A program made the translations under genes and the position numbers. A stretch of DNA of 64,000 bases from Legionella steigerwaltii (lineage in GTDB: Bacteria > Pseudomonadota > Gammaproteobacteria > Legionellales > Legionellaceae), in the NCBI RefSeq assembly GCF_001468065.1, contig NZ_LNYZ01000008.1, forward strand, positions 124,001 through 188,000. The letters run 5' to 3'. Below, piece after piece: positions 27,777-49,236 of this stretch (position 1 is the stretch's first letter; the number at the start of each line of letters is the position of its first letter). Below the pieces are notes generated by a model. The model was not told where the DNA came from. It saw nothing but the letters and a program-made list of their open reading frames with translations, and did no database searches.

Positions 27777-29396
27777 TTGGAACATCTAAAGTCTTTCAAT
27801 ACGCCCCAAACGCCTCATACTGTAGATGTGAATGGAAAAGGCATGCCCATTGTAACAATTGGGTATGGTTGTCAATTGACTATTGCTTCTTCTCAAGCAT
27901 TGGCACATTATTCATCACCAGTGGCCTTACCACCACAGGCGATGGAGGCGATTGAAGCGTCATATCAATTTTTGAAAACTCATGTTGATTCGAGGGTTCC
28001 TATTTACGGTGTGAATACAAATTTTGGTGATCAGGTCCGCTATATCGATACTGCACTCAAAGATACTGACACACTTGATTACTATGATTCGATTAATGAA
28101 CGACAAGAAAACATTATTCGTTCGCTTTCTTGCGGTTTAGGTACTGTAGTTTCACCTCATATTGTACGTGTCACGATGATGTTGCGTGCCCATTGTTTGG
28201 CGCAAGGGTATTCAGGCGTTCATCCTGAATTGATCAATTCACTTTTAGACTTTCTCAATGCAGGTATTACTCCTGTTGTCCGTTGTTATGGTTCTATTGG
28301 TGCTAGTGGCGATCTAATCCCTCTTTCTATGATTGCAGCAGCACTTATTGGCGAGCCAGTCGCAGTTACTTATCAAGACAAAGTGATGTTGGCACCTGAA
28401 GCAATTCAATTAGCTGGCCTCAAACCGTATAAGCCCGTGATGCGTGATGGACTAGCTTTAATTAATGGCACTTCATTTATGACTGCAATTGCCAGTTTGG
28501 CAGTTTATGATTTGCATCATCTATTTAAACGTATGTTGGCTGCGGTTGCGATGACATTAGAGTCCTTACTCGTGATTAGTAGTGCGTATCATCCGATGGT
28601 ACACCAACTGAAAAAACAGAAGGGTGAAATAGAAATCAATCAATTTTTTATTGATTTCTGGGAAGGTAGTCAACTATTGACTGATTTAGATGAGTTGCGG
28701 ACAAAAGATTATACCTATAAACCAGTACAAGATTATTATTCTATTCGTTCTGTTCCTCAAGGATTCGGCCCTTTCCAAGAGAATTTGGAGCGTGCTATCG
28801 GGTGGATAGAAAGTGAAATGAATTCCGTTAATGATAATCCTGTTATCGATGTTACTGCGAATAATATTTATCACAGTGCAAATTTTATGGGTTATTATGT
28901 TACTGATGCATGTGATATTTTGAAAATGAATATTGCGCAAGCTTCAACTTGGATGCATGCATTGCTCGCAAATTTAGTTCATCCACGGAAAAATCATAAT
29001 TTACCGGTGAACTTAGTACCTAATCCAGAAAAACACAACGGTTTTCGTTCCATGCAGCTTTTGTCTGCTGCTCTTGCGGTACAAAATCGCAAATTGGCTC
29101 AGTCACATCAGGCATATACTTTACCGACTGAAGGTGATAATCAAGATGTGAACAGTTTGGGAACACATGCTGCTTTTGATTTGCAAGAGTCAGTTGCCAA
29201 TTTAGAACGTCTAACCGCTATTTTGCTTCTCGCAGCAACACAAGCGCTTGAATTTCGTGGTGTTGAAAAAGCAAGTAAAAAAGCTCAATCTATTTATCAC
29301 ACGGTTCGTCAATATTCTCCAAAAATAGAACATTGCAGACCGATGTCGGAAGAAATTGAGATGATGGTTAATTTATTAAAGGATGGCAAAATATAG
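27777..29396 (+). CDS. Aromatic amino acid ammonia-lyase, probably phenylalanine ammonia-lyase
   Basis: A 539-residue member of the histidase/PAL family that eliminates ammonia through an MIO prosthetic group formed from Ala176-Ser177-Gly178 (IGASGDLIPLS). Automatic annotation would probably call it hutH, but the diagnostic segment near residue 455 is NQDVNSLG, the version in plant and fungal PAL and aminomutases, whereas histidases have QEDHVSMG with a catalytic Glu. The substrate-pocket segment YGVNTNFGDQVRYI also differs from histidase. No other hut gene is near. The TTG start at 27777 is backed by GGAG seven bases upstream. With a PKS that begins with an acid-activating ligase only 1.6 kb away, I infer that it supplies cinnamate (or, less likely, coumarate) as the starter. 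Confidence 0.85.
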   Translation: MEHLKSFNTPQTPHTVDVNGKGMPIVTIGYGCQLTIASSQALAHYSSPVALPPQAMEAIEASYQFLKTHVDSRVPIYGVNTNFGDQVRYIDTALKDTDTLDYYDSINERQENIIRSLSCGLGTVVSPHIVRVTMMLRAHCLAQGYSGVHPELINSLLDFLNAGITPVVRCYGSIGASGDLIPLSMIAAALIGEPVAVTYQDKVMLAPEAIQLAGLKPYKPVMRDGLALINGTSFMTAIASLAVYDLHHLFKRMLAAVAMTLESLLVISSAYHPMVHQLKKQKGEIEINQFFIDFWEGSQLLTDLDELRTKDYTYKPVQDYYSIRSVPQGFGPFQENLERAIGWIESEMNSVNDNPVIDVTANNIYHSANFMGYYVTDACDILKMNIAQASTWMHALLANLVHPRKNHNLPVNLVPNPEKHNGFRSMQLLSAALAVQNRKLAQSHQAYTLPTEGDNQDVNSLGTHAAFDLQESVANLERLTAILLLAATQALEFRGVEKASKKAQSIYHTVRQYSPKIEHCRPMSEEIEMMVNLLKDGKI

Positions 29397-29444
29397 TAAA
29401 TGGTCACCTTGTAGCAAGGCCTACGTGACCTATGGCAAAATATA
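29383..29444. repeat. 13-bp direct repeats flanking a small palindrome
   Basis: ATGGCAAAATATA occurs at 29383-29395 (end of the lyase gene) and again at 29432-29444. The 36 bases between contain GGTCAC (29402-29407) pairing with GTGACC (29425-29430), with CTTGTAGCAAG inside. The layout resembles a tiny insertion with a target duplication, or a local duplication plus terminator. Confidence 0.5.
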
Positions 29445-29455
29445 AGGGAGTGAAC

Positions 29456-30733: not shown

Positions 30734-30776
30734 CGCACCGTGCCTAAATTTACCGAGCGGATGTATTTGGCGCATC

Positions 30777-30849: not shown

Positions 30850-30917
30850 CCTGTGCTCAAATCCAACCGTTCACCAAGATTCATCCACTTCTCCTGAACG
30901 GGTTGAGTTTATTAGTC

Positions 30918-31009: not shown

Positions 31010-31010
31010 A

Positions 31011-34000
31011 TTAGACATCACATGCTTCTTTACAAAAGTGCTGTAACTTTTCGGTGATTTTTTGAATTACTTTCGATCGTATTTCTTTTTCTCTTATAAA
31101 AAGATGTCCGCTATCAAATTGTTGAAATTCACAATGTCCTGAGGTGTGCTCGGCCCAACCTAAATGGTCTTCTGGAGAGACCCAAGCATCGTGTTTTCCT
31201 AAAAATACAGTAGTGTTTAGCTTTAAAGGGTGTTCATCGCGATAAGTATAACTTTTTACAATATTCATATCACCGATAAAAATGGGTAATAATACTTTAA
31301 TGATGCTTTTGTTCATTCGTTCATCGCTGTAATCAACAATGCCATTTTCTTGAAATACGATGGATAAAGCAGTTAATTGTTCGTCATCTAACTCACCAAT
31401 TCGTTCAGAGTTTAAATCAAATAAATTGATATTCATGTGCTGCAGTTTTGCCAGCAGATTATTTAAACTTTTGGATGGTACTCGTGGATCAGGATAGGCT
31501 GATGCAAAAAGATGGACAGGTGTGGGTAGGTGATGGCTACGTAAATATCGTGTCAGCTCAAAGCCAATCAGTGAACCAAAACTATGCCCAAAAAAGGCAA
31601 AAGGTAAATTAAATTGGGGTTTAAGTTGATGGGCTAATAAAGAAACTAAGGTGTCCAGGTTTGCAAGAGGTTGTTCTTCCATTCGATTTTCCCTACCTGG
31701 CAATTGCACTGGGCATACTTCAATAAAATCAGGGAATTCCTGCTGCCATTCGCGATAAATGGAGGCGCCTCCACCACCATATGGAAAACAAAACAAACGA
31801 ACTTGGGCATGTTCTTGCATTTTTCGATTGGCGATCCAAATGTTATCAAAATGGGTTGATGGTGCAGGCTCTGGTTTCGCTCCTATCCATTGGCTTGATA
31901 ACACATACTCAGCAATCTCATTAATTGATGGACCTTGCATCATCAATGGCAAAGAATAAGTAACGTTCAAACTGGATTCTATGATTCGGATTACGGCTAA
32001 TGCCATTAGAGAGTCCATTCCTAATTCATGCAAGGATTGAAAGGGATTGAGATCACTCTGAGGCATTGAAAAGATAAGAGCGAATTGCTCGGTCAAATAA
32101 TGGATCAATTTATTTTTACATGCGTCATAAGGCAAAGATAAATCAAGTTGAAACTGAGACTGAATTTCCATGATTTGATTAATTTGTAGTGTATCGTTGA
32201 GTATGGTCATGCGTAGATCATGACATTGGGCGATTAAACGATAGTTTTTATCCAACAAATACCAATCAGCAATGATGTGTTTTCCTTCTGGATGCAGTTC
32301 TTTTAATACCGTGTAGATGTATTTCTGGTCCTCTACTGAGCCATAAAACTCGATAGTGCCCATATGTGATGCAATATAGGGTTTAGTAAATTGTTCTGGC
32401 AATAGTAAAAAGAGGGTTTGAATGCAGGCATCGATGATGCCCGGATGCATTTGGGTTGCAAATTGTTTTCCACGTTCTGAGGCTTTAGGTTCGCGTAACT
32501 CACAAAATAATTCATTGTTGTTTGCCCAATATTGCTGGGCCCAACGAATGGTGTCACCCGCCGGCATCCCCATGCTGGTGATGCGATTGTAGAAAGTTTC
32601 GATACTTCCTGATGTAGGAAGTCGTTTGATCAATTCCTTCTTAGTTTCGAGTTGACTGGAGAGCGAAGTATTCAATGCTATAGTTCCTGTTGCATGCTCT
32701 ATCCAATGTTCTTTGTCATTACAGCTGTAAAAACGAAATGATAATGCATCATGTTCCCTTTTCTCGATAATTAAGTGGACCAAAACAGTTTTTCCATCCA
32801 GAACTAATATCGGAGATAAAAAATTAAGATGATGCACACTAAAGGACACGGTGGGTTGTAATTGCTTTGTGGCATACGCTAACATTTCCAAATAATAACC
32901 TGCATGCAAAACATAAAACGTATCCTGGATCTCCGGCATTGTTTTTGTATCAAAGACAAACTCAAATTGTCGCGCGGATAAAGGCGAAGAAAGGACTTTG
33001 CCTCGCATTGGATAGCTTGTATTTATAAATTCACTTGAGCCTTGATCAAAGGTTGGCCAATAGATTTTGTGTTGCCATGGATAAAACGGCATATCCAGAG
33101 GCATATAAGTTCGTTCTGCTTCAAATTTTCTCCAATCAACCTGTGCATGGTTTACATAGTTTTTTGCTAAAAGTGGTAAATCTATGGTTGAAAACTCGGA
33201 TATTTGGAGTGGCGTGCTGGTTTTTTTTAGTTCACGATTAATCAATATCTGTTTATTTTTAGTGTTAGGATCGGCACGCAAAATCTCCAGTTTTTGATAA
33301 AGATCTGCAATTGAACTGGTAATTATTGCTAAACGATGTATGTAATGAGAGCGCCTGATATGGAGGTTATAACAGAGTTGTGCCAGGTTCGTTTCGGGAT
33401 AGTTTTTTAAAAAATCACACCAACATTCAATCAAAGCAGATAATGCAGAGGGTTCTTTTGCCGAAATGGTGAATAATTCTTTATCCCGAGCAATGACATT
33501 TGTAGAATCGGGTTGTTCATTTACAGCAAGTTCTCGGAGCACAAGATGTGCATTGGCACCACCAAAACCAAAACCACTCACTCCAGCAATACAAACATCA
33601 CCATATCTAGGTAATTGTTCTGCTTTAAGTGGGATACGCAAAGAATAACGATCAAATGGAATATGTGGGTTCGCCTCAGCAAAATTAAGATGAGGTGGAA
33701 GCAAACCATTTTTTAAAGCTAAAGCTACTTTAATCACACTCATAATACCTGCTGCGGGCTCCAGATGGCCTACATTGGTTTTAACTGAGCTTATCCAGCA
33801 TGGTTTTTGGGGATCGCGATTTTTACCGATGACCTCTCCCAAAGCTTGTACTTCAATAGGGTCTCCTAGAAAAGTTCCTGTTCCATGGCATTCGATATAG
33901 GAAACATGAGCAGGATCTGTTTTGGCTGCTCGATATGCTGAACGGAGTAAGTGTTCTTGTTGCAAACCATTGGGTGCAGTTAAACCATTTGTTTTGCCAT

Positions 34001-34886
34001 CTTGGTTGATTGCTCCACCCATAATCACTGCATAGATTTTGTCTTTATCCTTTAATGCCTTGGAAAGTGGCTTCAGTACAATGGAACCGGCGCCTTCTCC
34101 TTGCACATAACCATCCGCTTTGGCATCAAAAGTGTGGCACTGTCCAGTAGGAGAGAGCATCGTTGCTTTGGCCAAAACAGAGTGTATGGAAGGTAATAAA
34201 TTGATATTCACCGCGCTGACTAGCGCGGTATCACATAATTTTGCTTGCAGGTTGAGACATGCTAATTGAATGGCGATCAACGAAGAGGAGCATGCTGTAT
34301 CTAATACCAAACTGGGCCCGCGTAAATCGAATAAATACGATAAGCGATTTGCTGCCATACTGATAGCACTTCCGGTAGGAATAAACAAAGCATCCATATC
34401 CGAATCCAGTTTTTGCAGATGACTAAACTGGCTTGCGTATAAACTGGAAAAAACGCCCATATTTGATCCTGCCAAGGTCTCAACAGTTAAACCGGCATCC
34501 TCAAGAGATTCATAGGCGACTTCCAATAAGATCCGTTGCTGTGGATCCATGCGCATGGCTTCGCGTGGACTAATGCCAAAAAAATACGCATCAAATGCCT
34601 CTATGCGTTGTAAATAACCACCCCAATAGGGCAAATTGGCATCACGTTGTTCTGGTTCTCGAGTTCCTTTCAGGAGTTCCCAACGCTCGTCGGGTATTGG
34701 GGAAATGACATTGTGACCTTGGCATAACAATTCCCAAAATTCTTGAGGGGTATTCGCAGAGGGTAAACGACAACTCATCCCAATAATTGCAACGGGGTCA
34801 AATGATTTTTCATTTTGTTCCTGCAAAAGCTTTTTTAGCTTTTGAATCATTAACAATGATTTTTTTAAAGTAGTTGTATCATTCAT
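31011..34886 (-). CDS. Polyketide synthase, final module: KS-(DH-like)-ACP-TE
   Basis: A 1291-residue PKS that carries the last extension module and releases the product. Residues 1-30 are a coiled docking segment (LKKSLLMIQKLKKLLQEQNE). The ketosynthase (about 30-450) has Cys199 in DTACSSSL, His in ECHGTGT near 333 and in KTNVGHLEP near 372. No AT domain follows. A domain at about 610-900 resembles PKS dehydratases (IIDACIQTLF has the conserved Asp near 818), but the catalytic HxxxGxxxxP motif is replaced by DTFYVLHAGYYLEM, so I doubt it dehydrates; it could help cyclisation. The ACP has Ser959 in LGMDSLMAL. The thioesterase (about 1030-1291) has FPYGGGG, nucleophile Ser1102 in GHSFGS and His in DSGHLF. 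ATG 34886 overlaps the upstream PKS stop by 8 bases. Confidence 0.92.
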   Translation of the reverse strand: MNDTTTLKKSLLMIQKLKKLLQEQNEKSFDPVAIIGMSCRLPSANTPQEFWELLCQGHNVISPIPDERWELLKGTREPEQRDANLPYWGGYLQRIEAFDAYFFGISPREAMRMDPQQRILLEVAYESLEDAGLTVETLAGSNMGVFSSLYASQFSHLQKLDSDMDALFIPTGSAISMAANRLSYLFDLRGPSLVLDTACSSSLIAIQLACLNLQAKLCDTALVSAVNINLLPSIHSVLAKATMLSPTGQCHTFDAKADGYVQGEGAGSIVLKPLSKALKDKDKIYAVIMGGAINQDGKTNGLTAPNGLQQEHLLRSAYRAAKTDPAHVSYIECHGTGTFLGDPIEVQALGEVIGKNRDPQKPCWISSVKTNVGHLEPAAGIMSVIKVALALKNGLLPPHLNFAEANPHIPFDRYSLRIPLKAEQLPRYGDVCIAGVSGFGFGGANAHLVLRELAVNEQPDSTNVIARDKELFTISAKEPSALSALIECWCDFLKNYPETNLAQLCYNLHIRRSHYIHRLAIITSSIADLYQKLEILRADPNTKNKQILINRELKKTSTPLQISEFSTIDLPLLAKNYVNHAQVDWRKFEAERTYMPLDMPFYPWQHKIYWPTFDQGSSEFINTSYPMRGKVLSSPLSARQFEFVFDTKTMPEIQDTFYVLHAGYYLEMLAYATKQLQPTVSFSVHHLNFLSPILVLDGKTVLVHLIIEKREHDALSFRFYSCNDKEHWIEHATGTIALNTSLSSQLETKKELIKRLPTSGSIETFYNRITSMGMPAGDTIRWAQQYWANNNELFCELREPKASERGKQFATQMHPGIIDACIQTLFLLLPEQFTKPYIASHMGTIEFYGSVEDQKYIYTVLKELHPEGKHIIADWYLLDKNYRLIAQCHDLRMTILNDTLQINQIMEIQSQFQLDLSLPYDACKNKLIHYLTEQFALIFSMPQSDLNPFQSLHELGMDSLMALAVIRIIESSLNVTYSLPLMMQGPSINEIAEYVLSSQWIGAKPEPAPSTHFDNIWIANRKMQEHAQVRLFCFPYGGGGASIYREWQQEFPDFIEVCPVQLPGRENRMEEQPLANLDTLVSLLAHQLKPQFNLPFAFFGHSFGSLIGFELTRYLRSHHLPTPVHLFASAYPDPRVPSKSLNNLLAKLQHMNINLFDLNSERIGELDDEQLTALSIVFQENGIVDYSDERMNKSIIKVLLPIFIGDMNIVKSYTYRDEHPLKLNTTVFLGKHDAWVSPEDHLGWAEHTSGHCEFQQFDSGHLFIREKEIRSKVIQKITEKLQHFCKEACDV

Positions 34887-37800
34887 AGGTAAGCTCTAGC
34901 TCTTTTAATTCCAATTCAAGCAGTTCATTGAGTTGTGCATCGTTTAATTGATCCAAATCAATCGTTCCTTCGGCACTAAAAAGTGGTGCAGGACTGGGTT
35001 CGCAGTTTATTTGCACCCGTTGCATGATGTAATCTGTCAATTGATTTAGGGTGGGGTAGCGGTATAAATCCATCGGTGCGACCACATCAGGGAAGTGTTT
35101 GCCCAGCTCTTCGGTATAATCGATGCCGGTAATGGAGTCCATCCCATAGTGTTGGAAGGGAGTTTCCCGGTCAATTTCAGCCACTTCTAATCCTAATACG
35201 GTGGCAAAGAGATTCAGAACTAATGCAATAATTTCTTCCGGGGTTAATGAAGAAACGACTGCGGTTGGTGGGCTTGCAGCATATTTAGCGACGAAATAGT
35301 TAAAGAAATCAAGTTGCTTGGCGGTGGGATTCACTTGTAAGAATTTCTTCCATTGAATCTTACACACGGTAATTTCAGCACGATTAAGTCTGAGGAGGGT
35401 ATGAAACAGTGCAACTCCTTCTTTAATACTCAAAGAAGCCATGCCCACAGCATCTAAAAATGCATCATGATTATGTCGGTGACTCATCCCTTTTTCCGAC
35501 CAGGCGACCCAGTTAATGCTGGATGCGGGTAATTGCATACCGCGACGATACAGAGCAAGACCGCTCATAAATTCATTTGCTACGGCATAGGCACTCAGCC
35601 CAGCCATGCCAAAATGGGGCACTGCTGCAATAGAAGAAAACAACACGAAACATGATAATGGAGCTTGCAAAAAGAGTTCATGCAATACCAATGAGCCTTG
35701 TATTTTTACGCGTATCACATTGTTCCATAATGCTTCATCCATATCGGCAATTGTGACATTATCTGTAGTGATTCCAGCCAAATGGAAAACGCCATCAATG
35801 GACTGCTGCCATGCTTTTTCGGCATCCATGATGACCTTGTGCATTTGTTCTTTGTCAGCCACATCGACTGCAGCATATCGAACTTGTGCTCCTTTCGCTT
35901 CTAATTGTCTGAGCCAAGTATTTTTCTCTGCAGTTTGCGGGGACAGTTCTGTAGTTCCCGTAAGTAAAATAAAGCGCGTACCCTGGGCTACAATAAATTC
36001 CGCTATTTCATAACCTAAAGCACCTAAACCGCCAGTAATTAGTGCAGCAACAGGAGTACTGCAGGAAGGCGGCATCTCATGATTTTTTGGCATTTCATAA
36101 GGCATAAAGCGAATGGTGTAGCGTTCCGCAGCACGATAGGCAATGTGATTTTGCTGGGTTTGATACAGAGTCAATTCTTTGGCCAGGATCTTCGAATGAT
36201 GCTCCATACGTTCATCCACATCCAAATCAAGCAGTAAGGCTTGGTATTTTGCCTGTTCAGCGGCAAAAATACGGGTCATGGACCAAAGATGGTGTTGCCA
36301 GATGTTCACGGAATCACTGGGATTCACGTATTGAGCAGATTGTGATGCAAGACAAAAGATTAATTGATGTTGCCAAGAATGCTGGATCATGGCTTGGAAC
36401 AGATATAATAATGCCTTGGCGGGATCTGATTGGTTTTCTTTGCTTGCAGTATGCTCAGAACATAAATAGATGATTCCGCGTAAATGTTCTTGATGCAATG
36501 CATGGACTGCGGCAAATAATTGGTCATAATCTGCTTTTTGAGACCCATTAATTGCGAATTCATCATGATGAATCGATACAAATTGATTGCTTGCAAAACA
36601 ATAAATACTGCTAGCAAATTCTTGTCTCAATACAGGAACTGATTCTTGGTCACAAAAAATAAGCCATTTCCCCTTATTTTTTGTCAGTCCAGGCTGAGTT
36701 GTTTGCGGATTTTTCTCCCATTGGGTCATGTAAAGCCAATCTTGGACATCAACTATGTCCATATCGGGCGCTGCAGCCGGAGTAGTTGGTTGCACAGTGG
36801 GTAACACGATGGGAGATGTTTCTACTTCCTTAGTAGGTATCCAGCAACGTCGTTTGGTAAATGGATAGGTAGGTAACGAGATCATATTAGGGAGTACTTG
36901 TTTGTATAATTGTTCCCAATCAATTTTTGTTCCATTAATCCAAAGCTGGACTAACTCTTCATACCGTGCGTTGCTGATTAATTCTGCTAATTGAGCTGCT
37001 GGTTGAGGATTACTCTGTGCATGATGATTTATCCAGTTACCCTGAGGATAATTCGCCAAAGCTGCAAGCAATTCCTCTTTGTTGCTGGCAATCACTGCAA
37101 ATCGTGCGGCCATATGCTCTCGCCCTGTTTGCAAAGTAAAACATGCATCTCTGAGCCATTCTTGATTTTCGGTATAACGGTTTTGCAGCAAATAGTGATG
37201 CATTTGCTGTATTTTTGCCGCCAATCGCTCCTCATTTAATGCAGAGAGTAAAAAGATATATGGGCTATTTACCAGAGTTTGTTGTTTTATTGGTGGTATG
37301 TATTCCTCAATAATCATATGTACGTTCGCACCACCTGCACCAAAGGAACTGACTCCGGCGCGACGCGGTACATGATGATTAGGTTTCCAATCAGTGAGTT
37401 CTTGTTGTACATAAAAAGGCGAGTTTTTAAAATCAATAAAGGGATTTAATTGGGCGCTATGTAATGTGGGCACTAGTTTTTGATGACGCATTTGCAAGAG
37501 TACCTTGGCCAATTGCGATACGCCTGCTGCGGACTCCAAATGTCCAATATTGGATTTGACCGAGCCGATCGCACAAAATTGCTTGTCTTCCGTATAGTGT
37601 TCAAAGGCATCTTGCAAGCCCCGAATTTCTATGGGGTCTCCTAAAGAGGTTCCTGTACCATGGGCTTCAATATACGATACAGTTCGAGCATCAATATTCG
37701 CATTCTTTAAGGCTTGGAGAATCACAGCCGCTTGAGCATTGGGATTAGGAACAGTATAGCCGCTGGTTTTCCCACCATGGTTCATACTACTCCCTTTAAT

Positions 37801-40800: not shown

Positions 40801-43800
40801 CGCAATCGAATCCGCTTCATCAGTTACAATACGTCTGGACTTTACTGGATGAGTATTAACGTGCAGTTGGGCTACTTGATGATGGGTTGTCGCCACTGCT
40901 TCGGGAAATTGATTTATAAGATATTGGCTGATTGCTAAGACACTACTGTGAGTAAAGAAAACGGCAGGTGTGAATTCTACTTTGTAGTGTTCCGCAATCT
41001 TTTTGGCCAATTCAATAAAATGCACTGAATCCATCCCATATTCACCAAGATTTTTTTCGATTGCAATTCGGTGTTGCGTTATTTTCAAGATTTGAATAAT
41101 GTGCCGCACCAGAAACGAGTTTACTTTATCAATAAGCCCATTTTGCGTTAATGTCCAATTGATTGGCTTTTCTTGAGCAAAAGCAAGTTGTTCCTCATCA
41201 GAGTACCAATAACGTTCTTTGGCAAAAGGATAGGTAGGTAAAGATATTTTTTTCCTGGATTCACCGGCGTGGATATGATTCCAATCCAGATTTTGACCCT
41301 CCACATAAAATTTTGCCAGCGTCAGCAAAGCCTCTTGATAGTGAGTGGCTTGTGACAATTGTTGCATCACTAGAGGTAAAAGCGTTGTGTTAATTAGGTG
41401 GTTTTCAGATTTATTGCCCGCATTTTGTTGCATAAACAAGTGCGCTGGATTTTGTCGTGCTTTAAGTTGTTGAATTAAACGGATCACCTCATCAAGTGAG
41501 CTGGCAACCATGGAACAACGATACTCAAAATGACTTCTGCCTGCATTTAAGGTGTAGCTAACCTGTTCTAGCTGTGCTGATGGATTTTGCTCTAGCCAAG
41601 CCAATAAATCATCGAGACGTTGATTTAAGGCGATTTCGGTTTTGGCCGATAGCGTGAGCAAATAATGCGATTTATTCCTTGTCGAAGAAGAAAATACCTC
41701 CGGTGCTTCAGACAAAATCAAATGGGCATTCGAACCTCCTGCACCAAAAGAGCTAATTCCGGCAATTCGTGGTAAATTGACCAATGGTTGTGCCCATTCA
41801 CTGATGGTTTGCTGTACACGAAATGGGGTGAGTGACCAGTCTATGTTGGTATTCAATGGTTCAGAGAAAAGTGAAGGAACTAAGGTGCGGTGTTGTAATT
41901 GCAATACCACTTTGGTGACTGCAGCGATTCCTGCGGCAGACTCACAATGACCGATATTCGATTTGACTGAACCAAGTGCACAGTGGTGTTGTATGGATTG
42001 GCCGAATACTTTATTTAATCCGGCAATTTCAATAGGGTCTCCCAGCGAAGTTCCTGTGCCATGTGCCTCGATATAACTGACTTGTGCCGGATCGACATTG
42101 GCTTTTTGGTAGGTTTCTGCAAGTAACTCAGCTTGCGCATTCGGGTTGGGTACCGTGTAACCATTTGTTTTACCACCATGATTGAGGTGACTTCCCTTAA
42201 TTACCGCATAAATAAGATCGCCATCTTCCAGTGCTTTATCCAGGGGTTTGAGCAATACTGCGCCAACGGCTTCACCTGGTACATAACCATCGCCGCCTTC
42301 ACCAAAGCTGCGGCAATGTCCGTCACGTGCTAAAAACTTTCCGTGGCTCAGCAAAAGGTACTTATTGGGATGCAGCGACAGATTCACTCCACCAGCAAGT
42401 GCCATGTCACATTCGCCTTCATGGATGCTTTGACAGGCTAAATGGATGGCCGTAAGCGAAGAAGAGCACATGGTATCCAGCGCGATACTTGGACCATGAA
42501 AATCAAAAAAATAGGAAACCCGATTTGCAATGGAAGCAAAAACTGAGTTTGTTGGTGAAAACCGCGATGATTCATGACCAAACAACTGGTACTGACCATA
42601 CATCACACCTACATAGACTCCAATTTTTCCCCCAGCTAATGCTTCACGAGCATATCCGGCATCTTCTATAGTTTTCCAAGCTGTTTCTAAAAATAATCGT
42701 TCTTGAGGATCCATTAACGCTGCTTCGCGTGGTGAAATATTGAAAAACAAGGGGTCAAATTGATCCACATCCCTTAAAAAGCCGCCCCATTTGCTGTACA
42801 TTTTACCCTGGTGCTCTTGATGGGCATCAAAATAATCTGCCCAGTCCCATCTATTCTTAGGGATTTCTGTAACGCAGTCTTTGCCTGCGCAAAGGTTGTG
42901 CCAAAACTCGGTTAAATCATCCGCCTCGGGATAGCGTCCACTAATACCAATAATGGCGATGTCTTGAGATTTTGATGAATTTTTTTTAAAACCAAGAGGT
43001 TTGGGCCTTGTTATTATGTTAAGGATTTTCCCTTCTCCCCATGGGAACAGGGCGGATGAGGGTATTGATTGTGGACAATGAGCCCTCAGCCCAGCCCCTC
43101 TCCCACTTGCGGGATAGGGGATTCTTAACTCATGGGAGTGATGTTCTATGAAGTATTCAGTTAAATCAGCCAAGTTGCGACATTCAAAAAATAGTGTTTT
43201 GGGTAACGCGGTGAACTCTTTGGCCAGGCGTTGATTGAGTTGAATAATCATTAAAGAGTCGATGCCATAATTTTCGAAAGGCGAATTTCTATCAATACTT
43301 TCTGGCGAACACTTTAAGGTTTCGGCGAGTATGTTCTTTAAAAACTCTTCGGTTTGTTCATGTAAATTGCGATTTACTCCTTTGGAAGAAGTTATAGATT
43401 GTTTCAACACTGAATTTTTTTGCATTGCATGCATGAGTTTTTGCTGATAACCCGGGAGAACAATAAAATTTGCAACAGAGTGATGTAAAGCGTGCAGGAA
43501 GGCGCTCAATCCTTGCTGAGTGGATAAACTCAGAATACCTAAAGTTTGCTCAAGTTCCTGTTGGTATTCGGGAGCAATATGTAGTCCCCCCTCTTCCCAA
43601 AGAGGCCAGTTAATTGAAAGAGTATGTCCATAACAGTCCCCCTGAGCTCTTTGTTTCTCTCGTTCGCAGGCAAATTCATCGAGAAAACGATTGGCATAGG
43701 CATAATCACTTTGTCCTAAATTACCAAACACTGCTGAGGCGGATGAAAACAGAATGAAAAAATCTAAAGGCTCTTTACATGTTGCAGTATGCAAATTACA

Positions 43801-46800
43801 GGCGCCATAAATTTTGGGTGCTACAACCTTTTCTATTTCGGGTATTGTTTTATTGACAATCAATCCGTCTTGAGTAAGTCCTGCAGCATGAATAATGCCA
43901 TTTAGTGCACCAAAGCGTTTTTTAGTGGTTTGAATCAGTGTTTGCACATCCTCGTAGGAGGATACATCTGCTGATACATAAGCTACTGAGGCGCCGTTCT
44001 GTTCCAGTTCTGCGACTCTTTTTTGATGTTGTTCAGACAGGGTTGTACGACCTGTTAATACAATTTTGGCCTGATAATGTTTTGCCAAATACGTTGCAAA
44101 TAAATACCCCAGCCCACCCATGCCACCAGTAATTAAATAAACTCCAGATTTTTTGAGCATTGGCGGCGTTTCTTTTAGTGAAGGAAGCGGGACGTAATGT
44201 CTGATATATCGCTGATTCTGTTCATCATAGCGGACATAAATCTCATTTTGGGTTATTTCATTTGCAAGCAGGCTTAGATCATGTAATTCAATAAAGCGGC
44301 AGGAGATGTTGGATTGTTCCTGATGTACGCACTTTGCAAATCCATCCAAGGCCCGAGAAAAAATGGAGGGGGTTTTACTAATACCAATTAATTGTACGGG
44401 GTGTTTGGGTTTTAATTTACTGATTTGGGTTACTACAGTATGAACCAGATAATAAGTTTGCTCGAGTTTTTTTTGAATCTCTGTCGTTGAAAGGGACTCA
44501 CCATTTAATTCTTCCAGTGCAATAATAATACATTCGCTGAGTGCATTGATGTTTACCTGTGCCAGATCGTGTAAGAGCAGATACGAGACAGTATGGCCTG
44601 AGAATTGTTTTCTTATTGCTTGTACTGACTGTTCATTACTTCCTAAAATTAGAATGGAGTCTGGAGTTTTCCTCGTTGATGCACGCACCGCTTGTGTAGT
44701 CCATTGATGAGAATAATAGGCTACAGTTGCTTCAGGTTGTAACGGCTCATGCACTGCATATAAAGTAAATCCAGTAATGACCAATAAGAGTGTTCCTTCA
44801 ACATCAGTGACTTGAATGTTACATGTCGGCATACGCAAACTGTCTTCTGTGGAAATCAGGTGAGCATGTACATAACAGGTATTGGACAAAGCCCTATAAA
44901 TATCGACTTGTTCAATAGAAAAAGGGAGATAAAGCGCTTCGCGATTTTTAAGCAGTGCCTGAGTTGTCTGTAAGATTCCATCGAATAAACAGGGATGTAA
45001 CACAAATTCATTATGCTGTAGGTCTGCAGGCAGAGCAATTTCTGCTAAGAGCATATTTTCATCAAAGTGTATGCTTTGGATGACTTGAAAACTAGGACCG
45101 TAGGATATGCCTGTATGATTAAAATGGGTGTAAATGGCTTGGGGATCTTGAGTATAAGGCAACGCTGTTTTTAATTCGTGTAGGTCAAGTGCGGTATGTG
45201 GCGTCTCGGCAGCATTATCCAGATAATGCATTGTGCCAGTCACATAAGAAACCACCTCATCTTTGTCAGTTACTGAAAATGAGACGCAATCGGTTTCAGG
45301 AAATAAAAGAACATGCAGTGGGGTCGATAAATCCGGATTTATTATTGGTTTTTTCCAAGTGATCTTGCTTAGAGTGGTTACTTGCTGATTATTTGCAGCC
45401 ATGTTGGCCGCAACGCGAACCATTTCCAAACACACAGCACCGGGCAATACTTGCTCATTGTTGATTCGGTGATCGCGCAAATAGAATTCGTTTCCAGTAA
45501 ATCGTTTACTGAAAGCGGAAGCGGAGAACGTAGAAATATTCTCATCTATTAATGTATGCGTATCGCATTGTGAATTATTTTTGATTTCTACCCAATGTGA
45601 TTCTTTGGCGAAGGGATAAGTAGGAAGCGATATTTTCCCCTGATAATCGCCATAGATTGCCTGCCAATCGATTGATTGACCTTGTAGATAATTGATACGT
45701 AGTTGAATTAAATCATTAGTCTGCTGATTTAATTCATAGTCAAGCACATGAGACTCTATATCTTTGTGGGATAAAATAGACTGCAATTGTTTTTTCAACT
45801 CCGCAATGGTTTTCACAATCACGCAAAAACGCTTGCTAAAATGTTGTCTGCCTGTATTTAACGTATAACTGAGTGAAGCTAAACTTGGTGCATCTTTTTG
45901 GTTATCCAACCACTTGAGCAGATCAACAATACGTTGCTGTAATGCAGGTAAAGTCATTGCCGACAAACTAATAAGATAAGAGTGATGATTGGGAAATGGG
46001 GCGGGTGTTCGCTCAGGACTTTCTTCAAGGATAATGTGAGCGTTTGCACCACCAAAACCAAATGAACTTACTCCCGCTCTTCTGGGCTTACCGGGCACTT
46101 TTGACCATTTAGTTAGCTTATCAACGAGATAAAATGGGCTGTCCTCAATCTCGATGTAAGGATTTAATTCATTTAAATGTAGGTTAGCCGGCAACATTTC
46201 ATGATTCATGGCTAACAATGTTTTTATGATTCCTGCGATTCCGGCTGCAGATTCCAAATGACCAATATGTGTTTTAACTGCGCCTAATCCACAATATTGT
46301 TTTGGCAATGATTGAATGTTTTGCTCCAAGGCCAAGTGTTGGAATGCTTTTTTTAGGCCATTAATTTCAATGGGATCACCGAGCGGTGTACCGGTTCCAT
46401 GGGTTTCAATGTATTGAATACTGTCGATGGGCACTTGAGCCCGTTGGCAGGCTGAAATAATGACCTCTGCCTGGGCATTGGGGTTGGGGGCAGTTAAGGT
46501 ATTAACATGTCCACCATGATTCACAGCAGTTCCTTTAATTACCCCATAGATGTGATCGCCATCCTGTAATGCCCGAGATAATTTTTTTAATAAAATAGCG
46601 CCTGCACCTTCGCCACGAACATAACCATTGGCGTTTTTATCAAAAGTTTTACAACGTCCATCGTCACTTAGCATGCCTGCTTGATGGGCTGCAACAAATG
46701 AAGTGGGGGTGATTAAAGTATTCACTCCACCTGCAAGCGCCAGATCACAATCACCTTGCAAAATCGCATGGACTGCCTGGTGAATGGCAACCAGGGAACT

Positions 46801-49236
46801 GGAACATGCTGTATCAATTGTTTCACTTGGCCCGCGCAAGTTTAAAATGTAGGAAATACGATTGGCAATCATGCTGTTCATCGTGCCCGTAGTCAGGTAG
46901 GCATCCATGACCTCATTTTTTTGCAATAATTCGGCATAATCATGATTAAATACGCCCACAAACAAACCTGTTTTCAATGCAGCAAGGGTTGCAGGGGTGT
47001 AACCGGCATCTTCAATTGTTTTCCAAGCGGTTTGCAGAAACAATCGTTGTTGTGGATCAATGAGCTCTGCTTCGTGAGGTGAGATATTAAAAAATGCAGC
47101 ATCAAATTGATCTACATGATCAATAAAACCACCCCATCTTACGGTTAAATCACGCCAATTCCAGCGCGATGAAGGCACTTCGCTGATGCAATCTTTCCCC
47201 TGATATAAATTATTCCAAAAGGCATCCACATCGGGTGCTTGCGGGAAAATACCGCTCATCCCAATGATTGCAATGTCGCTGGACTCCAGTGTATGTTTTG
47301 CTTTTTCTTGATGCACGACTGCAACGTTTTTTGTAGCTAATAGATCGGTATAAAACTCTGCTAAAGTGGTGTATTCATACAAAGCCGCAGGGGATAGGGC
47401 GAGTTGATACGTTTCATTAAGCACACTGGTGAGATGAATGATGTTCATGGAATCAAAGGAATAACGACTTAATGGGGCATGCAAGTCAATTTCATCCTCA
47501 TCTATTTTCAATACATGAGCAACCAGGGTTGTGAATTGGATTTTGTTGTTGCCTTCATTTTTGTTGGGTGTTGGCTTTATGGATATATCTTGGATTAATA
47601 CGGCAAGACTTTGTTCATTAAATAGTAATTGCGCTTTTTTTCGTTGTAATTTGCCACTTCCGGTTTTGGGAATTGCCCCCTTAGGGCTTAAAACGACTTC
47701 ATGAACATCCACACCATGATGTTTGGTGATCGCATGACGAATCGCATTCTTGATTTCAGGATAGAGCGATTTATGCGTTTCTTCCGACAATTCCTGGACA
47801 ATGATAATTTTTTCATTGCCCGCAATTTCTGTTGAAAAGGCTACTTGGGGTAGTTTGATCTGGAACGTTGCCAGTGCATTGGCGACAGTGATTTCTAAGT
47901 CAAGCGGGTAGTATTTTTTGCCATAAACGACGATAACCTCTTTTAATCTTCCAGTTAAATAAATTTCATTATCCAAGATAAATCCGAGATCTCCAGTTTT
48001 AAAATAGTGAAGATCACTTCCTGGTACCGTTGCGTGAAATACTTCTTGGGTTTCATCAGGACGTCGCCAATAACCTTGGGCCAGTGATTTGCCGGATAAC
48101 CAGATTTCACCACTTTCTCCGTTAGCAACAGCTTGCTTGGTTTCGGGATCAACCACAATGGCCCGTAATCCTGCTAATAATTTGCCACTACTGACCAATT
48201 GTCGCTGGGCATTATCTTGAAGTGTTAACGAGCAGGGTTCGCGACCAAAAGACGTTACTGCAATTGCTCCAGATAATTCGGACATCCCGTACGCGGAGCA
48301 AAATTGCTTTAAAGCAAAGCCACATACCTTGAATTTAGTGATGAAATTGATAAGTGTTTGATATTGAACAATATCTCCGCCATTAATCGCTACTTTCCAA
48401 TGTTTTAAATTAAGCGAAGCAAGCTCCCCATCCTGAATATCACGTACGCAAATATCATAACCAAAATTAGGACAACCACTATGGGTGACGCGATAGGTTG
48501 AAATGGCGGATAACCAGGTAACAGGCTTATTAATGAAGGCTGCAGGCGGCATGATAATTGCCAGTGTGCCATGATATAAAGGTACAAGGATACCGCATAC
48601 TAATCCGTATACATGGGTATGGGGAGCCCAGGTTAACGTGATGCTTTTCTTGGTGTAATGCCAAACTTTAATTGTTTCTTGCAGGCTATGTTGCAAATTG
48701 CCATGCGTGATTATTGCTGCTTTGGGCGCAGAAGTTGACCCCGATGTATATTGTAAATAGGCAATAGTATCCTCAGTGATACGAATGGGTTGATAAGCTT
48801 TGGTAGATGGTTTTTTTATCGCATCCGTGGCCAATACAGGTACTTTTTTCTTTAGAGTCGTTTCAATACTGGAGCGATACTGATTCAAGCTTAAAACCGC
48901 AGCAATGTCCGCATCGTAGGCTATGGTGTTCAGGAGCGCTTCATGTTTTGCAAATTCATCGATTTTAGGGCATGGCACTGGCACTGCAATGACACCTGCA
49001 TACCAACATCCTATTAAACTTGCTATAAATTCAACCCCGGCAGGATAAAGAAGTACAACTCGATTGCCTTTCATTTGCTGGGTTTGTAAATAGGACGCAA
49101 TAATTTTGGCTTGATGATCCAATTCGGCAAAAGTGAGACTTGCTTTCGGATTTTTCCCATCTTCTAAATAGAGGACTGCTTCAGATTGAGGATGTTTTTG
49201 AGCTCGGTTCTGTAATACATTAACAATATTTTGCAT
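34879..49236 (-). CDS. AT-less modular polyketide synthase with AMP-ligase loading module
   Basis: Giant PKS of about 4785 residues, started at ATG 49236 (GGAAG six bases upstream). Domains in order: acyl-AMP ligase 1-540 (YTSGSTS near 163, GSGK near 528); ACP Ser596; KS1 (Cys811 in DTACSSS), DH (DHRINNEQVLP with His1256, Asp1419), KR (GGMGGLG near 1704, Tyr1845), ACP Ser1994; KS2 (Cys2257 in DTMCSSS), ACP Ser2737; KS3 (Cys2976), ACP Ser3475; KS4 (Cys3724), KR (GGLGALG near 4398, Tyr4550), ACP Ser4701. No AT anywhere, so malonyl units must be loaded in trans. The ligase activates an acid, inferred to be cinnamate from the nearby lyase. The acidic C-terminal helices (LDQLNDAQLNELLELELKEL) should dock onto the next PKS. 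A 93-nt repeat is embedded in frame between ACP2 and KS2. Confidence 0.93.
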   Translation of the reverse strand: MQNIVNVLQNRAQKHPQSEAVLYLEDGKNPKASLTFAELDHQAKIIASYLQTQQMKGNRVVLLYPAGVEFIASLIGCWYAGVIAVPVPCPKIDEFAKHEALLNTIAYDADIAAVLSLNQYRSSIETTLKKKVPVLATDAIKKPSTKAYQPIRITEDTIAYLQYTSGSTSAPKAAIITHGNLQHSLQETIKVWHYTKKSITLTWAPHTHVYGLVCGILVPLYHGTLAIIMPPAAFINKPVTWLSAISTYRVTHSGCPNFGYDICVRDIQDGELASLNLKHWKVAINGGDIVQYQTLINFITKFKVCGFALKQFCSAYGMSELSGAIAVTSFGREPCSLTLQDNAQRQLVSSGKLLAGLRAIVVDPETKQAVANGESGEIWLSGKSLAQGYWRRPDETQEVFHATVPGSDLHYFKTGDLGFILDNEIYLTGRLKEVIVVYGKKYYPLDLEITVANALATFQIKLPQVAFSTEIAGNEKIIIVQELSEETHKSLYPEIKNAIRHAITKHHGVDVHEVVLSPKGAIPKTGSGKLQRKKAQLLFNEQSLAVLIQDISIKPTPNKNEGNNKIQFTTLVAHVLKIDEDEIDLHAPLSRYSFDSMNIIHLTSVLNETYQLALSPAALYEYTTLAEFYTDLLATKNVAVVHQEKAKHTLESSDIAIIGMSGIFPQAPDVDAFWNNLYQGKDCISEVPSSRWNWRDLTVRWGGFIDHVDQFDAAFFNISPHEAELIDPQQRLFLQTAWKTIEDAGYTPATLAALKTGLFVGVFNHDYAELLQKNEVMDAYLTTGTMNSMIANRISYILNLRGPSETIDTACSSSLVAIHQAVHAILQGDCDLALAGGVNTLITPTSFVAAHQAGMLSDDGRCKTFDKNANGYVRGEGAGAILLKKLSRALQDGDHIYGVIKGTAVNHGGHVNTLTAPNPNAQAEVIISACQRAQVPIDSIQYIETHGTGTPLGDPIEINGLKKAFQHLALEQNIQSLPKQYCGLGAVKTHIGHLESAAGIAGIIKTLLAMNHEMLPANLHLNELNPYIEIEDSPFYLVDKLTKWSKVPGKPRRAGVSSFGFGGANAHIILEESPERTPAPFPNHHSYLISLSAMTLPALQQRIVDLLKWLDNQKDAPSLASLSYTLNTGRQHFSKRFCVIVKTIAELKKQLQSILSHKDIESHVLDYELNQQTNDLIQLRINYLQGQSIDWQAIYGDYQGKISLPTYPFAKESHWVEIKNNSQCDTHTLIDENISTFSASAFSKRFTGNEFYLRDHRINNEQVLPGAVCLEMVRVAANMAANNQQVTTLSKITWKKPIINPDLSTPLHVLLFPETDCVSFSVTDKDEVVSYVTGTMHYLDNAAETPHTALDLHELKTALPYTQDPQAIYTHFNHTGISYGPSFQVIQSIHFDENMLLAEIALPADLQHNEFVLHPCLFDGILQTTQALLKNREALYLPFSIEQVDIYRALSNTCYVHAHLISTEDSLRMPTCNIQVTDVEGTLLLVITGFTLYAVHEPLQPEATVAYYSHQWTTQAVRASTRKTPDSILILGSNEQSVQAIRKQFSGHTVSYLLLHDLAQVNINALSECIIIALEELNGESLSTTEIQKKLEQTYYLVHTVVTQISKLKPKHPVQLIGISKTPSIFSRALDGFAKCVHQEQSNISCRFIELHDLSLLANEITQNEIYVRYDEQNQRYIRHYVPLPSLKETPPMLKKSGVYLITGGMGGLGYLFATYLAKHYQAKIVLTGRTTLSEQHQKRVAELEQNGASVAYVSADVSSYEDVQTLIQTTKKRFGALNGIIHAAGLTQDGLIVNKTIPEIEKVVAPKIYGACNLHTATCKEPLDFFILFSSASAVFGNLGQSDYAYANRFLDEFACEREKQRAQGDCYGHTLSINWPLWEEGGLHIAPEYQQELEQTLGILSLSTQQGLSAFLHALHHSVANFIVLPGYQQKLMHAMQKNSVLKQSITSSKGVNRNLHEQTEEFLKNILAETLKCSPESIDRNSPFENYGIDSLMIIQLNQRLAKEFTALPKTLFFECRNLADLTEYFIEHHSHELRIPYPASGRGAGLRAHCPQSIPSSALFPWGEGKILNIITRPKPLGFKKNSSKSQDIAIIGISGRYPEADDLTEFWHNLCAGKDCVTEIPKNRWDWADYFDAHQEHQGKMYSKWGGFLRDVDQFDPLFFNISPREAALMDPQERLFLETAWKTIEDAGYAREALAGGKIGVYVGVMYGQYQLFGHESSRFSPTNSVFASIANRVSYFFDFHGPSIALDTMCSSSLTAIHLACQSIHEGECDMALAGGVNLSLHPNKYLLLSHGKFLARDGHCRSFGEGGDGYVPGEAVGAVLLKPLDKALEDGDLIYAVIKGSHLNHGGKTNGYTVPNPNAQAELLAETYQKANVDPAQVSYIEAHGTGTSLGDPIEIAGLNKVFGQSIQHHCALGSVKSNIGHCESAAGIAAVTKVVLQLQHRTLVPSLFSEPLNTNIDWSLTPFRVQQTISEWAQPLVNLPRIAGISSFGAGGSNAHLILSEAPEVFSSSTRNKSHYLLTLSAKTEIALNQRLDDLLAWLEQNPSAQLEQVSYTLNAGRSHFEYRCSMVASSLDEVIRLIQQLKARQNPAHLFMQQNAGNKSENHLINTTLLPLVMQQLSQATHYQEALLTLAKFYVEGQNLDWNHIHAGESRKKISLPTYPFAKERYWYSDEEQLAFAQEKPINWTLTQNGLIDKVNSFLVRHIIQILKITQHRIAIEKNLGEYGMDSVHFIELAKKIAEHYKVEFTPAVFFTHSSVLAISQYLINQFPEAVATTHHQVAQLHVNTHPVKSRRIVTDEADSIAIIGMQGLFPQSDDLSSFWQHLVDGHDLVTEIPAERWDWRDHYGIEANQSNTKWGAFINNFDQFDAGFFNISAREANLMDPQQRLFLEIAWKVIEDAGYDPFALSSQSIGVFAGVEFSEYQTLIAKQQKEHHGFIATGNSHSMIANRVSYFFNFQGPSEAIDTACSSSLVAIHRAVQAIRHGECDMAIAGGVSLILSPDTLVVTSQLGALSADGRCKSFDKTANGYVKGEGVAGLLLKPLKQAQEDGDHIYGVIKASAVNHGGKAQSLTAPNAAAQSELLIRAYTQANFNPDTVTYIETHGTGTALGDPVEIEGLKRAFTTLLASEIKPDSIALGSVKTNIGHLEPASGIAGVIKLIMAMTHETLPGILHLNELNPYINLINTPFYILKETQTWQRIKNEAGEDIPLRAGVSSFGFGGTNAHIVLEEGRPHQTIVGPHQTKPCYLIALSAKHQESLQQKIEDLYQWLNQNKETVCLPSLSFTLNAGRAHFVYRCALVVDSIDALLHALTLLIQHEIPEYCMLNEGQTLTIQGPVFDEVYQAAINALHQSDNPDQYRHKLFILADLYTKHYAIDWQHVYFGERISRLGTLPAYPFIKQRYWYDQELNTTPAPTVLAPVSKRVLPVEMDLSSQVLTYLQQIFAEKLRTAPELIQLDETYEVYGVDSLIGLEITNRLEKDFGTLPKTLLYERNRLNDLAKYFIKNYKEKLSDLVSAIHAKPAAIPLEIEAVKPITSTHEHWNQSSRDIAIIGLNGTFPMANSMDEFWHNLSSGRNCVGEVPADRWNYKDYPVVIGGEEHYFPHGGFIPDVDKFDPLFFNISPRDAGLMDPQERLFMQSVWSTLEDAGYTRDKLKRKANNSVGVFAGVTYNFYPLFIAEEWQKGNRVPLDIQSFSVANRISYFLDVNGPSFVVDTACSSSLAAIHLACESLLRGDCRMAIAGGVNLSLHPSKYHFLGSFNFMSEQGRCASFAEGGTGYVPAEGVGSVLLKPLADAIADNDMIYGVIKGSSMNHGGKTSGYTVPNPNAQAAVILQALKNANIDARTVSYIEAHGTGTSLGDPIEIRGLQDAFEHYTEDKQFCAIGSVKSNIGHLESAAGVSQLAKVLLQMRHQKLVPTLHSAQLNPFIDFKNSPFYVQQELTDWKPNHHVPRRAGVSSFGAGGANVHMIIEEYIPPIKQQTLVNSPYIFLLSALNEERLAAKIQQMHHYLLQNRYTENQEWLRDACFTLQTGREHMAARFAVIASNKEELLAALANYPQGNWINHHAQSNPQPAAQLAELISNARYEELVQLWINGTKIDWEQLYKQVLPNMISLPTYPFTKRRCWIPTKEVETSPIVLPTVQPTTPAAAPDMDIVDVQDWLYMTQWEKNPQTTQPGLTKNKGKWLIFCDQESVPVLRQEFASSIYCFASNQFVSIHHDEFAINGSQKADYDQLFAAVHALHQEHLRGIIYLCSEHTASKENQSDPAKALLYLFQAMIQHSWQHQLIFCLASQSAQYVNPSDSVNIWQHHLWSMTRIFAAEQAKYQALLLDLDVDERMEHHSKILAKELTLYQTQQNHIAYRAAERYTIRFMPYEMPKNHEMPPSCSTPVAALITGGLGALGYEIAEFIVAQGTRFILLTGTTELSPQTAEKNTWLRQLEAKGAQVRYAAVDVADKEQMHKVIMDAEKAWQQSIDGVFHLAGITTDNVTIADMDEALWNNVIRVKIQGSLVLHELFLQAPLSCFVLFSSIAAVPHFGMAGLSAYAVANEFMSGLALYRRGMQLPASSINWVAWSEKGMSHRHNHDAFLDAVGMASLSIKEGVALFHTLLRLNRAEITVCKIQWKKFLQVNPTAKQLDFFNYFVAKYAASPPTAVVSSLTPEEIIALVLNLFATVLGLEVAEIDRETPFQHYGMDSITGIDYTEELGKHFPDVVAPMDLYRYPTLNQLTDYIMQRVQINCEPSPAPLFSAEGTIDLDQLNDAQLNELLELELKELELTYE
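43030..43122. repeat. Palindromic repeat inserted in frame in the PKS gene
   Basis: A 93-base GC-rich segment with the family's parts: CCCTTCTCCCCATGGG, GGATGAGGG, CCCTCAGCCC and CCCCTCTCCCACTTGCGGG. It resembles the repeats beside the DUF559 gene (CTCTCCCAC) and differs from the AT-rich sequence around it. Its length is 31 codons, so it keeps the reading frame and adds about residues 2039-2069, rich in Gly, Pro, Arg and Ser, to the linker between ACP2 and KS2. Confidence 0.8.

What the first reader, a model, noticed from the sequence alone, without database searches (positions are those of the whole stretch)
27777..49236. Lyase plus PKS predict a legioliulin-type isocoumarin, step by step
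The domain order fits one product closely. Starter: the lyase makes cinnamate and the ligase-ACP loads it (C9). Module 1 (KS-DH-KR) leaves a double bond, giving a phenylpentadienoyl chain. Modules 2 and 3 (KS-ACP) leave ketones. Module 4 (KS-KR) reduces the carbonyl that becomes ring position 6, so no hydroxyl stays there after aromatisation. Module 5 leaves the ketone that becomes the 8-hydroxyl, and the TE closes the lactone. Five C2 units plus C9 give C19: 8-hydroxy-3-(4-phenylbuta-1,3-dienyl)isocoumarin. From memory this is legioliulin, the blue-white fluorophore of L. dumoffii, reported to be made by a PKS from cinnamate. Module logic is read from sequence; the compound match is inference.
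Basis: partly seen in the sequence, partly recalled or inferred. Interest (0 to 1): 0.9.

Follow-up and report, generated by a model that had tools for sequence, protein, structure and literature searches.

The report
Legioliulin polyketide gene cluster in Legionella
This stretch of a Legionella genome carries the genes for legioliulin, the pigment that makes some Legionella species glow blue-white under UV light; the pathway is already known, but its unusual last module and a shorter relative in another bacterial order are worth a look.

Summary
A lyase, a FadL porin and two polyketide synthases (1291 and 4787 aa) lie at 27777-49242 in a Legionella genome. All five KS keep Cys-His-His: C9 + 5 x C2 = C19. 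PKS2 and lyase orthologs occur in the same 19 of 45 genus genomes, among them L. parisiensis, reported to make legioliulin. The legioliulin reading is well supported and already published; the L. dumoffii record itself could not be aligned. Points I have not seen in print: (1) the terminal DH-like domain lacks the usual dehydratase His/Pro motif yet is conserved, so it may be the ring-closing cyclase; (2) the ligase has His-Val-Tyr, like 4-coumarate ligases (His-Ile-Tyr), where fatty-acid ligases have His-Asp-Met; (3) a genome of another order holds the same four genes with a shorter, non-reducing synthase, and KS phylogeny shows the two lines differ by one reductive block plus one KR. The product of this strain is inferred, not shown.

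The parts
27777..29396 (+). Aromatic amino-acid ammonia-lyase (539 aa), proposed Phe -> cinnamate; MIO triad from Ala176, switch Ser116-Leu117, Gln456
   Evidence: PF00221 455 bits; below every NCBIfam cut-off listed; residues
29432..30733 (+). FadL/TodX-family outer-membrane porin (433 aa), proposed transport of the hydrophobic product or a precursor (inference)
   Evidence: PF03349 198.7 bits; beside the lyase in the stretches of all 19 carriers and in G146
31011..34886 (-). PKS2: KS5 - DH* - ACP5 - TE (1291 aa)
31047..31799 (-). Thioesterase (Ser1102, His1261), proposed lactone release
   Evidence: PF00975 119 bits
31902..32099 (-). ACP5 (Ser959)
   Evidence: PF00550
32172..33029 (-). DH*: dehydratase-family domain without the usual His/Pro motif, with invariant His661 and Asp819; candidate cyclase/aromatase
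   Evidence: PF14765
33288..34799 (-). KS5 with linker
34879..49242 (-). PKS1 (4787 aa; an ATG at 49236 is a possible start)
47593..49233 (-). Loading ligase, FAAL family, with His210-Val-Tyr212-Gly in place of His-Asp-Met-Gly
47353..47535 (-). ACP0, loading carrier (Ser598)
45832..47280 (-). KS1 with linker
44743..45558 (-). DH1 (His1258, Pro nine residues on, Asp1421; Asn where the motif has Gly)
43591..44523 (-). KR1 (Tyr1847)
43153..43344 (-). ACP1
41479..42960 (-). KS2 with linker; the one KS without a counterpart in G146
40903..41100 (-). ACP2 (Ser2739)
39523..40806 (-). KS3
38713..38925 (-). ACP3
37039..38571 (-). KS4 with linker
35533..36735 (-). KR4 (Tyr4552), proposed cause of the missing 6-hydroxyl
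35038..35250 (-). ACP4

Best explanation
This is a legioliulin biosynthetic cluster. Inferred working order: the lyase turns phenylalanine into cinnamate. The N-terminal ligase adenylates it and loads ACP0. An acyltransferase encoded elsewhere in the genome charges the ACPs with malonyl. Module 1 extends, reduces and dehydrates, giving the diene. Modules 2 and 3 add keto units. Module 4 adds a unit and reduces it (lost as water, hence no 6-hydroxyl). Module 5 adds the last keto unit (the 8-hydroxyl). On ACP5 the C19 chain undergoes a C2-C7 aldol and aromatises, perhaps with the help of the DH-family domain DH*, and the TE releases it by lactone closure as 8-hydroxy-3-(4-phenylbuta-1,3-dienyl)isocoumarin (structure recalled). 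Shown here: genes, domain order, catalytic residues, conservation, no AT domain found. Inferred: substrates, the DH* role, the product, transport by the FadL porin.
For: Domain order and catalytic residues. Same genes and order in L. parisiensis, anisa, gormanii, bozemanae, tucsonensis, rowbothamii and others. Of 45 genus genomes 29 have some match to the C-terminal 751 residues of PKS2; 19 of these are long orthologous matches (49% identity or more), and the same 19, and none of the other 26, have a lyase ortholog (73% or more in 18, plus a 79% fragment in G029; the remaining lyase matches are 34% or less). Lyase: Gln456 (not the HAL Glu) and no TAL His at the switch; Ser-Leu in 18 of 18 full-length orthologs, window included (criteria in PMC3992019). 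Ligase: His-Val-Tyr where 4CL has His-Ile-Tyr in 19 of 19, while a second FAAL-like ligase beside the cluster in G005, G033, G025 keeps His-Asp-Met. Stand-alone AT on another contig, besides FabD.
Against: The ligase is of the fatty-acyl-AMP-ligase family, so a fatty starter is not excluded by family alone. Among NCBIfam models the lyase scores best with histidine ammonia-lyase models (368 and 364 bits, both below cut-off) and its best solved relative is a probable HAL, just ahead of PALs (228 against 212 bits). Ser at the switch is neither the Phe of common PALs nor the His of TALs. The L. dumoffii cluster was not among the records returned. Four of the ten listed blue-white species (cherrii, dumoffii, lytica, steigerwaltii) did not come back by name. 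The stand-alone AT is not specific to cluster carriers. The DH* role rests on conservation only; the structure prediction never ran.
Confidence: 0.88

Rival explanations
1. Same assembly line, different starter: p-coumarate (lyase acts on Tyr) or another aryl acid, giving a legioliulin congener.
For: The lyase scores higher with the flexirubin TAL model (316.5 bits) than with the PAL model (278.6 bits), both far below cut-off. The first switch residue is Ser, not the PAL Phe. PMC5126622 itself suggests another starter for the red L. cherrii.
Against: No TAL-type His at the switch. L. parisiensis, reported to make legioliulin, has the same Ser-Leu and Gln.
Confidence: 0.08
2. A fatty-acid starter: the FAAL-type ligase loads a fatty acyl chain and the lyase serves something else.
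For: The ligase's best relatives among solved proteins are FAAL-type, incl. 3kxw (313.6 bits; that 3kxw is a Legionella FAAL is recalled).
Against: HDMG is replaced by HVYG in 19 of 19, while a neighbouring FAAL-like protein in three genomes keeps HDMG. Lyase and PKS orthologs occur in the same 19 genomes.
Confidence: 0.03
3. DH* is a relic without catalytic role; the TE or spontaneous chemistry closes the aromatic ring.
For: The usual dehydratase His/Pro motif is absent. DH* is no more conserved than KR1 and less so than the KS, TE and most ACP domains; and DH1, the yardstick, is itself about as variable as a linker. Some thioesterases are known to help ring closure (recalled, e.g. ajudazol; no call).
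Against: DH* is more conserved than DH1 (median identity 78% against 65%; median dN/dS 0.125 against 0.205) and than its KS5 linker (64%, 0.219). His661 and Asp819 are kept in 20 of 20 sequences, including one from another order.
Confidence: 0.35

Closest known systems
Legioliulin (lgl) cluster of Legionella (Ahrendt 2013, seen only as a reference; PMC5126622 and PMC13229132, passages seen)
   Same: Trans-AT PKS with a cinnamate starter in blue-white Legionella; orthologous proteins and order in L. parisiensis and others
   Different: No difference in domain order found against L. parisiensis; the window has the bare four genes, with nothing of 150 codons or more between fadL and PKS2
Fatty-acyl-AMP ligases (7r7e, 3kxw)
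   Same: Whole ligase domain, 374 and 314 bits
   Different: HVYG instead of HDMG in the pocket motif
4-coumarate-CoA ligases (5bsm, 3a9u)
   Same: His-x-Tyr at the corresponding motif (placed by eye through the shared Pro-x-x-His)
   Different: Distant overall, 77 bits or less
PKS dehydratases (CurJ) and trans-AT pyran synthases
   Same: DH* matches the CurJ DH (51.8 bits); pyran synthases are ring-forming domains of trans-AT lines (PMC4979870 passages; that they belong to the DH family is recalled)
   Different: DH* lacks the His of the H-x8-P motif and has its own invariant His661; no pyran ring in the proposed product
   Same: Lyase 62%, FadL 48%, PKS2 51%, same terminal KS-DH*-ACP-TE
   Different: PKS1 of 2907 aa with three KS, no KR or DH match; lyase switch Ser-His; ligase HVFG

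Membership tests
Legioliulin trans-AT PKS cluster | No AT in the modules, AT supplied in trans | tested here: met
   No AT family among the matches of either PKS; stand-alone 276-aa AT on contig C6 besides FabD; five of 19 carriers encode an AT right beside the lyase. That this AT serves this PKS is not shown
Legioliulin trans-AT PKS cluster | Aromatic amino-acid lyase beside the PKS | tested here: met
Legioliulin trans-AT PKS cluster | Orthology and same order in a species reported to make legioliulin (L. parisiensis) | tested here: met
   PKS1 78%, PKS2 80%, lyase 90%, same gene order and catalytic motifs
Legioliulin trans-AT PKS cluster | Alignment to the published L. dumoffii cluster | not testable with these tools
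   No L. dumoffii record among the 11 loci
Legioliulin trans-AT PKS cluster | Cinnamate as starter | tested here: inconclusive
   Lyase and ligase pocket residues are compatible, no assay
Legioliulin trans-AT PKS cluster | C19H14O3 product, blue-white fluorescence of this strain | not testable with these tools
   strain unnamed, no mass data
Histidine ammonia-lyase | Glu in the second motif; HAL model over cut-off | tested here: not met
   Gln456 (criterion in PMC3992019); 363.7 bits against 539.15 and 367.8 against 524, though these are its best NCBIfam scores; another PF00221 gene of 612.5 bits, probably the HAL, lies on contig C13
Tyrosine ammonia-lyase | His at the first switch position | tested here: not met
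   Ser116; criterion in PMC3992019
Phenylalanine ammonia-lyase | Phe or His at the first switch position, Gln in the second motif | tested here: inconclusive
   Gln456 met, Ser116 neither Phe nor His
Fatty-acyl-AMP ligase, fatty substrate | Family match | tested here: met
Fatty-acyl-AMP ligase, fatty substrate | HDMG pocket motif (as in 7r7e-g) | tested here: not met
   HVYG in 19 of 19
Active PKS dehydratase (DH*, module 5) | Catalytic His nine residues before Pro, plus Asp | tested here: not met
   Asp819 kept; at the MAFFT-aligned His column Thr in 14, His in 3, Ser in 1, Leu in 1 of 19; the Pro is His661 in all. DH1 has His and Pro in 18 of 18
Fungal product-template cyclase | TIGR04532 over cut-off | tested here: not met
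   26.7 bits against 168

The most novel reading that the evidence does not exclude
The terminal KS-DH*-ACP-TE protein is a portable isocoumarin-forming unit in which a dehydratase-family domain has become the aldol cyclase/aromatase, found in two orders. The legioliulin line and the G146 line differ by one block [DH1-KR1-ACP1-KS2] plus KR4, so one may have arisen from the other by splicing a reductive module into (or out of) a non-reducing aryl-starter line. G146 would then make a C17, 6,8-dihydroxy-3-styryl-type isocoumarin (C17H12O4 if its starter is cinnamate); no paper of the library holds the spellings of that name that I searched.
Probability: 0.35. Interest if true: 0.6.

Novelty: already known. 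Interest (0 to 1): 0.35.

Why it matters
As a finding, it identifies a published fluorophore pathway in a Legionella genome. Beyond that, it gives a natural comparison (same starter and release genes, different middle) for how trans-AT assembly lines gain or lose modules, names a candidate domain for the ring-closing step, and offers two sequence marks (HVYG in the ligase, DH* in the last module) that could find aryl-starter isocoumarin lines elsewhere.

Tried and rejected
Structure prediction of DH* (alignment A1) was asked for 13 times; the machine was busy each time, so there is no model and no fold search. Plasmid collection: 575 records match PKS2 (C-terminal 751 residues), all under 60% identity, 2 over at least 80% of the query (23% and 22%); of the 10 rows shown none looks orthologous. 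Family search: 143 genomes, 45 of them of the genus; of the other 98, four match at 1e-20, each over the thioesterase part only, none over the whole query. In the class search only the two best candidates per genome were scored, so misses are possible. G174 and G337 (31% and 28%) are other PKS genes with no lyase match in the stretches fetched; dropped. G038 (28%, 786-aa frame) was not counted as an ortholog. G026 and G029, split over contigs, were left out of the conservation comparison (16 of 18 relatives used). HxxxGxxxxP as a search pattern is no test, because DH1 itself has Asn at the Gly; the His and Pro columns were read instead. The stand-alone AT is not specific to the cluster: orthologs of 80% or more occur in six non-carriers, plus a partial match (83%) in G012. 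Paper searches without direct yield: no paper; listings; apart from PMC5126622 no title on this cluster. The window's species was not identified.

Full report
What is there. The window lies on contig 8 of a 3.95 Mb, 44-contig genome whose PKS has its named relatives in Legionella. Between a phosphomannomutase-type gene (26232-27620 +, here called algC) and an EAL/GGDEF gene (49464-51545 -) lie four genes: lyase, FadL porin, PKS2 and PKS1. PKS2 and PKS1 overlap by 8 bases on the minus strand.

Assembly line. PKS1 reads ligase - ACP - KS1 - DH1 - KR1 - ACP - KS2 - ACP - KS3 - ACP - KS4 - KR4 - ACP; PKS2 reads KS5 - DH* - ACP - TE. All five KS carry Cys, His, His. No AT family is among the Pfam matches. 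The genome has two AT-family genes over the cut-off: one between ORFs that read as fabH and fabG (taken as FabD) and a separate 276-residue AT; and one match to the phosphopantetheinyl-transferase family. The chain-to-ring mapping is my own working from established polyketide logic; the structure of legioliulin is recalled.

Link to legioliulin. PMC5126622 (passages) describes legioliulin as the product of a trans-AT cluster first identified in L. dumoffii, speaks of cinnamic acid as starting unit, and followed its fluorescence in L. parisiensis. PMC13229132 (passages) reports lgl genes in two further fluorescent species; PMC11828895 (passages) a cluster with 50% similarity in L. lytica; PMC10975825 (passages) lists ten blue-white species. 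One search returned 11 loci with PKS2: six of those ten species, plus L. steelei, L. saoudiensis and three unnamed species. The primary papers (Ahrendt 2013, Amemura-Maekawa 2004) were seen only as references. In 45 genus genomes (own included) 29 match the C-terminal 751 residues of PKS2 at 1e-3; I count 19 as orthologs (49-100% identity, long matches). The same 19 have the lyase ortholog, one of them as a fragment at a contig edge, and the FadL gene beside it. In the 17 clusters seen in one piece the order is lyase - FadL - (variable insert or none) - PKS2 - PKS1, with an AT between lyase and FadL in three of them (G013, G020, G023) and one more gene between them in G025.

Starter steps. The lyase is below the cut-off of all eight NCBIfam models listed; its best scores are with HAL models and its best solved relative is a probable HAL, then PALs. 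Its Gln456 excludes the HAL signature and Ser116 the TAL signature as stated in PMC3992019 (Fig. S1 legend); Ser is not the Phe or His given there for PALs either, so Phe is likely but not proved. The ligase is a FAAL-family domain. In 19 of 19 carriers the FAAL motif His-Asp-Met-Gly reads His-Val-Tyr-Gly. The 4-coumarate ligases 5bsm and 3a9u read His-Ile-Tyr here, Tyr239 and Tyr236 by position; PMC5239791 places Tyr239 of a related enzyme in the hydroxycinnamate pocket by modelling, and its mutants were less active. I matched the motifs by eye through the shared Pro-x-x-His, not by a direct alignment. A second FAAL-like protein beside the cluster in three genomes keeps His-Asp-Met. I take this as a pocket change towards cinnamate; it is a sequence argument only.

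Ring closure. DH* of module 5 keeps Asp819 but not the usual His/Pro motif. In the MAFFT alignment the His column holds Thr in 14, His in 3 (G013, G020, G023), Ser in 1 and Leu in 1 of 19; ungapped counting puts Glu652 there. The Pro is replaced by His661 in all. In 16 genomes against the window DH* is more conserved than DH1 (median identity 78% against 65%; median dN/dS 0.125 against 0.205, 13 unsaturated pairs each) and than the KS5 linker (64%; 0.219, 14 pairs), but about as conserved as KR1 (78%, 0.129) and less than TE (86%, 0.076), KR4 (85%) and the KS domains (87-94%); DH1 itself is no better kept than the KS1 linker (68%, 0.168). The pairs share history, so this compares domains and is no test with independent points. 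Pyran synthases are ring-forming domains of trans-AT lines (PMC4979870 passages). I think DH* as aldol cyclase/aromatase about as likely as not (0.5), with TE or spontaneous closure as the rival.

A relative in another order. Of 369 genomes drawn from the class, five match PKS2 at 1e-50: the own genome, one of the genus and three outside the family. One of the three, G146 (2 genomes of its order held, the other without a match), has PKS2 (51% by BLAST), lyase (62%), FadL (48%) and a 2907-aa PKS1: ligase - ACP - KS - ACP - KS - ACP - KS - ACP, with no KR or DH match. In a tree of 26 KS domains the four G146 KS join window KS1, KS3, KS4 and KS5 with support 0.997-1.000; window KS2 has no G146 partner and joins a KS of G337 with weak support, 0.712. 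The two lines thus differ by [DH1-KR1-ACP1-KS2] and KR4; which came first is open. Its DH* keeps His661 and Asp819. Its lyase has Ser-His at the switch and its ligase His-Val-Phe, so its starter may differ. With cinnamate the product would be C17H12O4; this is a prediction. It has two AT-family matches, one a 291-aa frame. No paper of the library holds the three spellings of styrylisocoumarin searched.

Genome position. In 13 of 19 carriers the cluster lies in the gap between algC and a TPR/methyltransferase gene (23.7-29.3 kb); in G001 the two are on different contigs. In five carriers (G013, G020, G023, G026, G029) that gap is 14-161 bases and the cluster lies elsewhere. In the 21 of 26 non-carriers with both genes found on one contig it is 110-7577 bases. 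The five with the other location are also those with an AT gene directly beside the lyase. So the cluster sits in at least two places in the genus, and the window's lineage appears to rely on an AT encoded elsewhere.

Verdict.

Noticed in passing
L018:15016-18921 (-) in G005; same gene in G033 and G025: A 1302-aa ligase-ACP-KS protein, 92-96% alike among the three, sits between PKS2 and fadL in three near relatives but not in the window; its ligase has the ordinary FAAL motif HDMG.
   Followed up: partly
G146:C27:134510-150189 (L076, L083): Legioliulin-like four-gene cluster with a shorter PKS without KR or DH in another gammaproteobacterial order; a finding in its own right.
   Followed up: partly
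G013, G020, G023, G026, G029: These carriers encode an acyltransferase directly beside the lyase, while the window's cluster has none.
   Followed up: partly
between fadL and PKS2 in relatives (e.g. L022:379-4935 +, L024:15939-19805 -): The spot between fadL and PKS2 holds different genes by species: two large proteins with no Pfam match in L. anisa; an MFS transporter, an AstE/AspA-type enzyme and a chloride channel in L. tucsonensis.
   Followed up: no
window 11073-14830 (-): IcmF-related and DotU-family genes, not examined.
   Followed up: no
window 58447-60279 (+): A 610-aa protein with a protein kinase domain (PF00069).
   Followed up: no
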